DNA from: Cristatella mucedo
Taxonomy: Eukaryota > Bryozoa > Phylactolaemata > Cristatellidae
Assembly: GCA_009760855.2 (NCBI GenBank)
Contig: WPIO01000008.1
Location: 6,858,501 to 6,922,500 of the forward strand
Reading direction: 5' to 3'
Length of the DNA: 64,000 bases
A program made the translations under genes and the position numbers. The stretch's first letter is position 1. The number at the start of each line of letters is the position of its first letter. The notes under the pieces are model-generated. The model did no database searches, had not been told where the DNA came from, and was given only the letters and a program-made list of their open reading frames with translations. Positions 7,401-10,400 of this stretch are shown one piece after another.

Positions 7401-10400
7401 TGGAGTGCTGCCTCTTGAACCCTGATTGAAATGTTTCTGACAATTTCCAAGCCTAGTTTAGGCAAGCGGTTCTCAAACTGTGGGTCGCGATCCCCCCACA
7501 TGATAATTTTACGGTTGGGGGTTGCCGCAACATGAGGAACTGTATTAAAGGGTCGCGGCATTAGGAAGGTTAAGAACCACTGGTTTAGGCTTTCATTTTT
7601 ATGAAGATGACACACAGCTACACCTGTGTTTTGATCGCTCAAACCTTCAAGCACGTTAAACTCTTTTTAATTCCCGTGCAGCAAGTTTTTCTTATATTCA
7701 AAATTTGATAGGAGGAAACTGTCTTTAAATTGAGTGAACATAAACCAATTCACAGCTTAGGAGAACCCTGAGTTTCTCAAAAATTGGAAATCATTGCACT
7801 CGATGTAGGCTTGTCCAGCATATCTCCTGTAGCCTCTGCTTGCAATGTAGGTGCCCTGCTCAAAGAAAATCTCTCACGAGTTGACTGCATCGGCTCCCCA
7901 GTCACGTTTGCCTAGTTTGAGTTACATACCATTGCAAAAACTTTGGATTACTTAGGTAAGCGAAGTAACCGTGTTGGGCCTGATGAAAGATGGTTTTCAT
8001 TCCAGTCTGAGGATGGTGCTGTAGCCTGCTTGCCCTGATGACAAATCGGCTGTGCCAAAAAGTGCATCCCACTTTTCAAACAAATAGCTGCTAGGCCTAA
8101 TTTGTCCTCAGTGCCGTTGGGGGAGGCTCCTGTCCCCCATTCATGGGGTTAGCCGCATGTGACCGTCCCGAGGTGCCGTCCTAGGCTGTCGACGGCGGTC
8201 TCGAGAGTAGCGTGCCAGTGCATGGCAGACGCTTACGCAATCGATTGGCTGTTACTCGGTCAACATTAAAAAGCTTTTTCGCGACCCAGGCAACACCGGG
8301 TAGATAAGGAAAGCGCACAGTGCGCACAATGCACTTTCGTTGGACTAACAACATCCTGCTGCTCAAGGAAGCAGTGCAGCAGCGACCTACCGGCTCGAGC
8401 TTTGTGCACTGTCAACACAGCCATTCATTATTTTGATAATTGCTCAATGTCTTTGGTCTCAGTTGGTTTGGTCCCTGTTCCTGCTTAGCTTAGAACACGG
8501 GGCAGCCGCAGTACAAGCAAGCATTCAACGAACGGTAATCGTGAAGCCTATTATTGTACCCAGGCTAGGTTCGGTTGGCTGGGAAACGTCGGCTGTAATG
8601 TGGTAAGGGTCACCGGCTAGGCCAGGGTCTGACCTATAGCATGGCATGGTGTGCTGACGGTGACGAGAAGTCACCGGGGCTCTAGGGTAGGAGAAGCTAG
8701 CCGAGTAAGTCGTGGTGTTGGAGGCTTCCTGTCTCACCGAGTTATGCACCTGGATGGTTGCATGCTGTGACTTGTATATTCCGAGTTCCCCGTGTAGCAA
8801 GTTCGTGGCCCCCCCCCCGTGAGTTGGTGTCTTTCGGCAGAAGCTCTCGACTGTGGTGGACGTCGACTCCGACTAGCCAAGCAGTTACTCAGCTAGCCGG
8901 ATCTTTTACAGCGTACACTCGTACTGTTGCAACGAAAACGGCGGGACTGCGGAAGCCGACTGACCAACTAACACGTTTGTTTGCGCTTGCTGTGTCGTCT
9001 TGTGCCCCTATAGTGTACTTTGTATAGGACCCTCCCTGTAGACTTATTTAGTTCCCCTGTTGTTGTTGGCACATGCGATATTATAAAGAGGTCTGACCTG
9101 ACTGCCACTGGTCTTACCCGAGCATGGCGAGCGGCTGCTAGGCCGGAGTATGGCAGGAATTAGCCTCTGACCCGTGGAACTCGGCTACGTTATTTTGACC
9201 ATTATTGGACCATGCGCTTTCACAAAAAACCTCAAAGTGACGCACGGCAAAGATGACGCCTCTCAACAGAGCTTGCGAAATGTCGAAGGCCCACCCCTAA
9301 CATACCTGATGACTTTACAGTGAACCTGTAATCACCTGAAAGAAGAACAAGCATGCCTCTTTGAGCTGTATCGCAAGCACCAGGCTGGTGGCACGGGCAG
9401 ACGTGCCGAGCTCGGCAAGGAGCTCGAGTGCCAGCGCGAGTGCCAGAGCCATTTGCATCCCTGGCACTTCTGCTTCAGCTGCTCTCAGACTCAGCCGCAC
9501 CCAGATTGGTGCGCAAGTGCACGACCGAAGCGCACTTGCTATCTGCATGCTCCGTGCGGCATCCCAATCCAGCCCTTCCGAGGTCCTAAATTTGACCTCA
9601 AAGGGACCAGAGTGCAAGGCATCACATACACAGCTTATGCTGAAATAACGCAGCCGGCATTTTGGCAGTGCGAGAATTGTGGGGGGAACACGACCATCAG
9701 AGAAAGAAAGAGCATAAGAGATTGAAGTGTGGCAATGCAGAGAGAGAGAGAGAGAGAGAGAATGAGGAAGAGAGAGGGAGAGAGGATATCGACAGATAGA
9801 CTGATCGGATATGATACAGCCTGTCTTGGCATACATTTCCACACTCGCATCATTGATGATAGCACGCAGCAGCGATCTTCAGGCAGAACACTCGGGCTTT
9901 CTCTCGGTTGGGCAGCGACGCCCAGCACGTACCGCGCATGACAACGTCCTTGAAAATGTGGCAGCCGAGCACTTGCAGTTCAGGGCAGCGGATGTGGCTG
10001 CGCATGGTAGTGGCGATCAGACCGATGGCGGGCTGGCTGAGCGCTACCCTGCCTTGATTCTCCGATGCACCACTGGTCAGCTCGTGGATGTGACTGAATG
10101 CTTCCTTTAGACAGTTCTCACTGTACGCATGGCTCCGCACATAGTCCAGCAGCGACTGAATCCCGGCATCTGTTGGCACTGGCCCTGCAAATGCATAGGC
10201 TGATGTGAATCGGTGCTGGATCAGCTCAAGGAAAGACTCTTGCTGGCTCCATGAAGACATTTATCGAGCATCTGCTCATTGATCCGAGAGATTGCATGCA
10301 AAGGTGCACAAGATAGCCTAGGAGCAATCCAGCACGTGACGTGCAGTAACATCAATCCCAGCCAAATGTCAGGGCACGGATGTACCTGCGCTGGTTCATG

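What the first reader, a model, noticed from the sequence alone, without database searches (positions are those of the whole stretch)
7456..7590. SPIN-like hAT element in a non-vertebrate genome, with perfect 8-bp target duplication
Seen: 119 bp between two GTTTAGGC copies, ends AAGCGGTTCTCAAACTG / CAGTGGTTCTTAACCTT, and internal GAGGAACTGTATTAAAGGG plus CGCGGCATTAGGAAGGTT. Known: SPIN is a hAT family noted for horizontal transfer between distant animals, and these strings match my memory of its consensus. Inference: the host lineage received SPIN or a close relative. The copy is shorter than the usual nonautonomous form and seems a further deletion derivative. It landed in a dead LINE, whose frame is restored on removal.
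Basis: partly seen in the sequence, partly recalled or inferred. Interest (0 to 1): 0.85.

Follow-up and report, generated by a model that had tools for sequence, protein, structure and literature searches.

The report
SPIN-type jumping-gene remnant, invertebrate genome
A 119-base stub of what looks like the SPIN jumping gene, a family known for crossing between distant animals including mammals, sits with many relatives in an invertebrate genome; it appears to be one more case of a known kind of cross-species DNA transfer.

Summary
A 119-bp element (7464-7582) lies between perfect 8-bp copies of GTTTAGGC, its ends matching as inverted repeats at 12/17. It belongs to a large family in this 572-Mb genome: 40 of 40 scored candidates matched, of 1736 in a first look, and 2 copies fell in a 200-kb sample. 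The usual host form is 187 bp; the window copy lacks about 69 bp of it. Two printed rodent primers give partial support. Target duplications have a central TA in 38 of 40 copies. The mitochondrial contig uses the invertebrate code, so the host is not a vertebrate; gene order suggests a mollusc (recalled). The restored-LINE-frame claim is right only locally. SPIN in Rhodnius and a SPIN-like hAT in Biomphalaria are in print, so this is a new member of a known kind. Transposase searches did not complete.

The parts
7456..7463 (+). left copy of the 8-bp target site duplication, GTTTAGGC (TA at positions 4-5)
   Evidence: 38 of 40 copies in the genome have TA at the same place
7464..7582 (+). 119-bp nonautonomous SPIN-type hAT element, a deletion derivative of the 187-bp host form
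   Evidence: 111 of 118 aligned bases to the host consensus, 108 of 117 to the recalled SPIN consensus
7464..7480 (+). 5' terminal inverted repeat (first base A where the family has C)
7566..7582 (-). 3' terminal inverted repeat
7583..7590 (+). right copy of the 8-bp target site duplication, GTTTAGGC; its TTAGGC is also the LG codon pair of the LINE motif LGFHFY
7583..7960 (+). decayed L2-like LINE reverse-transcriptase piece in which the element lies; may begin about 25 bp left of the element
   Evidence: tblastn (7585-7725 and 7757-7960); for the stretch left of the element (p 0.007, 0.024, 0.095 against three LINE copies)
6372..7443 (-). second decayed LINE piece, opposite strand, ending just left of the element
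   Evidence: tblastn; RVT_1 matches below the curated cut-off

Best explanation
This is a nonautonomous SPIN element (hAT superfamily, Buster-type target preference) in an invertebrate, probably a mollusc. A SPIN transposon entered this lineage by horizontal transfer. A 187-bp internally deleted form then spread to a large copy number, moved in trans by the SPIN transposase, by cut and paste with 8-bp target duplications centred on TA. The window copy lost two further internal pieces (about 60 and 9 bp) and sits in a dead LINE. Shown: ends, duplication, copy family, near-identity to a recalled SPIN consensus, invertebrate mitochondrial code. Inferred: horizontal entry, movement in trans, mollusc host. 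Not resolved: whether the extra deletions came before or after this insertion.
For: Element, ends and duplication. Genome search: 40 of 40 scored candidates at E <= 2.9e-26, on 32 contigs (counted by me), 1736 first-look candidates. 29 of 39 fetched copies have a 5' end whose duplication agrees at 7 or 8 of 8 bases, counted by me; 38 of 40 have TA at positions 4-5. Host consensus from 33 of 39 copies: 187 bp, 84/85 and 79/80 at the two ends to the SPIN consensus typed before these copies were seen. One 482-bp copy (L027) carries a stretch of the recalled mammal form that the 187-bp form lacks: 124 of 129 aligned bases over its last 129 bp. A printed mouse primer matches the host consensus at 24 of 28 and a printed rat primer at 20 of 22; their partner primers reach 13 of 25 and 12 of 22. 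Invertebrate mitochondrial code. SPIN in galago, murine rodents, opossum, tenrec and vespertilionid bats is stated in PMC5857283 (passage).
Against: No deposited SPIN consensus could be opened (papers not held), so family identity rests on recall plus two primers found with terms from the window or from recall; the rat primer also reaches 18 of 22 elsewhere in the window. No transposase or full-length copy was seen: all such searches did not complete. 8 of 39 fetched copies show no convincing 5' duplication and 2 agree at only 6 of 8. The scored copies were picked for likeness to the window copy, so their divergence of 0.033-0.103 (mean 0.071) is biased low; the two sample copies are about 90% identical to the consensus.
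Confidence: 0.9

Rival explanations
1. A native hAT (Buster or Charlie type) family of this invertebrate that only shares end motifs with SPIN, inherited vertically.
For: hAT families share short end motifs: a second recalled hAT consensus (MER5A) also aligns at both ends, 64 of 74 aligned bases with cheap gaps.
Against: The likeness of the host consensus to recalled SPIN covers 163 of 165 terminal bases. For the window copy the alignment score is 166 against SPIN, 41 against MER5A and at most 26 in 200 shuffles. Noncoding DNA would not stay this alike over the divide between animal phyla.
Confidence: 0.06
2. Vertebrate DNA contaminating the assembly.
For: None beyond the likeness itself.
Against: The 40 matches lie on 32 contigs and 2 more copies lay in a 200-kb sample; the window copy lies within LINE sequence related to other LINE copies of the window; the 187-bp form has a middle that differs from the recalled mammal form.
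Confidence: 0.01
3. A domesticated or regulatory use of this particular 119-bp copy.
For: None found.
Against: It sits in a dead LINE, has two extra internal deletions and 7 mismatches to the host consensus in 118 aligned bases. Conservation and expression were not tested.
Confidence: 0.02

Closest known systems
SPIN (SPACE INVADERS) nonautonomous hAT elements of murine rodents and other tetrapods
   Same: Ends, 8-bp duplication, and 163 of 165 terminal bases of the host consensus against the recalled consensus
   Different: The host form is 187 bp with a different middle (225 bp in the recalled mammal form); the window copy is 119 bp
SPIN in the blood-feeding bug Rhodnius prolixus (PMC11614815, passages seen)
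   Same: Same family name in an invertebrate
   Different: Another kind of host; the paper gives fewer than 5 SPIN copies within its piRNA clusters, which is not a genome count, so copy numbers cannot be compared directly
SPIN-like hAT of the snail Biomphalaria glabrata, about 1,000 copies (PMC5440852, passage seen)
   Same: SPIN-like hAT in a mollusc at high copy number; no intact transposase reported there
   Different: Host here is unnamed; 44-46% G+C and a 21-kb mitochondrial contig do not fit my recollection of that snail. The two elements were not compared

Membership tests
hAT superfamily | 8-bp target site duplication | tested here: met
   8 of 8 for the window copy; 29 of 39 other copies at 7 or 8 of 8, 2 at 6 of 8, 8 without a convincing one. 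hAT defined by 8-bp duplications and 15-bp inverted repeats: PMC11008031, passage
hAT superfamily | Short terminal inverted repeats | tested here: met
   12 of 17 in the window copy; 15 of 16 between the ends of the host consensus, counted by me
hAT, Buster group (target preference nnnTAnnn, recalled) | Central TA in the target site | tested here: met
   38 of 40 copies
SPIN | High nucleotide identity to the SPIN consensus across ends and body | tested here: met
   Against a consensus recalled from memory only: 178 of 186 overall, 84/85 and 79/80 at the ends; two printed rodent primers agree in part. Deposited consensus not available
SPIN | SPIN transposase in an autonomous copy | not tested
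   hAT-domain and long-copy searches did not complete
SPIN | Patchy, horizontally acquired distribution around the host lineage | not testable with these tools
   No relatives of the host are held

The most novel reading that the evidence does not exclude
A so far unreported invertebrate lineage, probably a mollusc outside the known SPIN-bearing snails, was invaded by essentially the same SPIN transposon that entered mammals, and amplified a private 187-bp form to thousands of copies. It would be a further node in the cross-phylum SPIN network. Whether this host is unreported could not be tested, since it was not named.
Probability: 0.5. Interest if true: 0.55.

Novelty: new member of a known kind. 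Interest (0 to 1): 0.42.

Why it matters
SPIN is a well-known case of DNA moving between distant animals. A non-vertebrate genome with a large SPIN family whose consensus is nearly that of mammals adds a host, gives datable copies, and can help place the timing and routes of the invasion. SPIN in an invertebrate as such is not new.

Tried and rejected
Exact-pattern scans for relatives found 0 in viral contigs and 0 in bacterial and archaeal genomes; these tools may leave out records near the window's genome. LINE relatives were sought to place the host: of 8 pattern matches in viral contigs none was confirmed; of 113 in genome contigs one was, 52% identical, in a bacterial MAG record, not informative. 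Rfam gave nothing in the window, in the 20 sample loci or in L002-L009. Literal sequence searches in papers found 0, 1, 0 and 1 papers. Paper searches for SPIN: 50 papers, 30 listed; 0; 10; 75, 40 listed; 7; 827, 20 listed. I saw listings and opened passages of only 6 of the listed papers for SPIN, so these searches do not show that no other invertebrate host is in print.

A vertebrate host (lamprey) was considered and rejected on the mitochondrial code; flatworm and echinoderm codes were rejected because ATA stands opposite Met 9 of 11 times and AAA opposite Lys 2 of 2. Tunicates are disfavoured only by recollection (all genes on one strand there); a lancelet is not excluded by the code. That C688 is the host's own mitochondrion is assumed.

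Chance in the primer evidence: the mouse primer was found with a 12-base term, which could occur by chance in so large a library; its weight lies in the other 16 bases, 12 of which match. The rat primer was found with a 16-base term from recall; 6 bases lie outside it, 5 of them matching.

Full report
What is there. The ends match as inverted repeats over 12 of 17 bases, the best of 1234 pairs of identical, not low-complexity 8-mers 68-1008 bp apart in the window; the next best has 11. No second copy was found in the window: the best other blastn match has E 0.019, and the internal 22-mer occurs once with up to 3 mismatches.

The family. The genome search was answered once. The assembly has 572,011,866 bases in 688 contigs and the window is C676:6858501-6922500. 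A first look gave 1736 candidates, 40 were scored, and all 40 matched at E <= 2.9e-26, the window's own copy included, on 32 contigs (contigs counted by me). I fetched the other 39. All 39 align through the 3' end. A 5' end with a duplication agreeing at 7 or 8 of 8 bases was found for 29 of 39, 9 of them at 8 of 8; 2 agree at 6 of 8, and 8 show no convincing 5' duplication (counted by me, where a shift of one base was allowed). Of 40 target sites read at the 3' side, the window's included, 38 have TA at positions 4-5. Two copies (L021, L032) share the same 12 bases after the element and may be one locus assembled twice.

The consensus. I aligned 33 of the 39 copies (L015, L025, L027, L034, L046 and L047 were left out as truncated or oddly long; for L010, L018 and L020 the 5' end was set by length). 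The majority consensus is 187 bp. Copies differ from it by 0.033-0.103 substitutions per site, mean 0.071; the sample is biased to copies like the window's. The window copy matches it at 111 of 118 aligned bases and lacks two internal pieces of about 60 and 9 bp; the six bases between them (CCACAT) are in the middle of the 187-bp form, so it most likely derives from that form. In a sample of 20 stretches of 10 kb (200 kb, 5,000 of them N), taken at round-number positions on contigs already known to hold copies, there were 2 copies of about 90% identity. That is about 10 per Mb, a point estimate of several thousand in the genome; with only 2 copies counted, anything from several hundred to about 20,000 fits.

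Is it SPIN? No deposited consensus was available. The host copies seen later contain the 5' part that the window copy lacks, and their consensus agrees with the recalled text at 84 of 85 bases at the 5' end and 79 of 80 at the 3' end; overall 178 of 186. Most of the differences lie in the middle. One 482-bp copy, L027, carries a middle stretch of the recalled mammal form and matches it at 124 of 129 aligned bases with one 3-base gap, so a longer parent probably existed here. Print support: a mouse F3 genotyping primer (PMC5575489, passage seen) matches the host consensus at 24 of 28, and a rat lncRNA primer (PMC5739704, passage seen) at 20 of 22; their partner primers reach 13 of 25 and 12 of 22. 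In the window outside the element the four primers reach 18 of 28, 18 of 22, 17 of 25 and 15 of 22, so the rat match is the weaker. The search terms that found the primers came from the window or from recall, which weakens this further.

The host. The last contig, C688, is 21,008 bp and is a mitochondrial genome. Its COX1 is identical to mouse COX1 at 376 of 505 residues. AGA and AGG occur 10 times in the aligned stretch, 8 of them opposite Ala, Ser or Gly; ATA stands opposite Met 9 of 11 times, TGA opposite Trp 13 of 15, AAA opposite Lys 2 of 2. That is the invertebrate code and excludes the vertebrate and the echinoderm or flatworm codes. COX1 and cytochrome b were confirmed by search and the large rRNA by Rfam; the other genes were named by eye. 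ND1-ND6-CYTB-ND4L-ND4-ND5 run on one strand, a mollusc-like block as I recall. A species name was not reached.

The site. The right flank encodes [11 protein letters not shown] of a LINE on the + strand. Two of three other LINE copies in the window read KHNLGFHFY there, with one TCTAGGC. Taking out the element and one duplication joins TISKPS to LGFHFY in frame. The match left of the insertion is modest: 12, 11 and 9 of 24 bases to the three LINE copies, shuffle p 0.007, 0.024 and 0.095. Left of about 7445 the flank is a different LINE piece on the opposite strand.

How it works. By the established behaviour of hAT elements, the transposase of a full-length SPIN would bind the ends of this nonautonomous copy in trans, cut it out and insert it at a staggered 8-bp site, here centred on TA. 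The 187-bp form would have multiplied this way. The transposase itself was not seen; all searches for it were unanswered. Horizontal entry is inferred from near-identity of noncoding ends between an invertebrate and (recalled) mammals. Direction and date are open; PMC5857283 gives 15-46 million years for mammals (passage).

Known ground. SPIN in Rhodnius (PMC11614815, passages), a SPIN-like hAT of about 1,000 copies in the snail Biomphalaria glabrata (PMC5440852, passage), and 385 SPIN elements in the painted turtle (PMC4054807, passage) are in print. SPIN in Lymnaea and planarians is recalled only. This is therefore a member of a known kind in what may be a new host; whether the host has been reported could not be tested.

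Noticed in passing
58974-59128: Degenerate array of the plant-type telomere-like unit CCCTAAA, inside a candidate element 58451-59199 with an 8-bp ACCTATGC repeat and 11 of 17 matching ends; could be chance.
   Followed up: partly
17374-18557, 46384-47789, 62196-63085, 36148-37194, 41482-42184, 4189-4660: Related copies of an L2-like LINE, up to 91% alike; two stretches begin with a (TAA)n run at 4189 and 41482.
   Followed up: partly
25911-27520: Open pieces that look like an LTR retrotransposon on the - strand; the zinc-knuckle match is below its cut-off and the 25911-26777 piece matched no Pfam family.
   Followed up: no
11775-12334: Protein-kinase exon pieces on the - strand (Pkinase, one of two above its cut-off); further kinase-like pieces at 19213-19395 and 23471-23686 matched no family there. 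STKLD1-like by recollection only.
   Followed up: no
29564-40748: Coiled-coil pieces on the - strand that resemble CFAP157 by recollection; Pfam and PDB gave only weak matches below cut-off or none for those tested.
   Followed up: no
L061 399-6207: Viral-like or Maverick-like gene cluster (A32-like ATPase above cut-off, phospholipase A2-like match below it) next to a LINE reverse transcriptase. Described only.
   Followed up: no
L089 3075-3365; L090 1632-1922 and 3747-4037: The 21-kb mitochondrial contig carries the same stretch three times, once in the other orientation, so it is enlarged by long repeats.
   Followed up: no
L027 147-628: 482-bp SPIN copy with a long middle that holds a stretch of the recalled mammal form; where the rest of that middle comes from is unknown.
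   Followed up: partly
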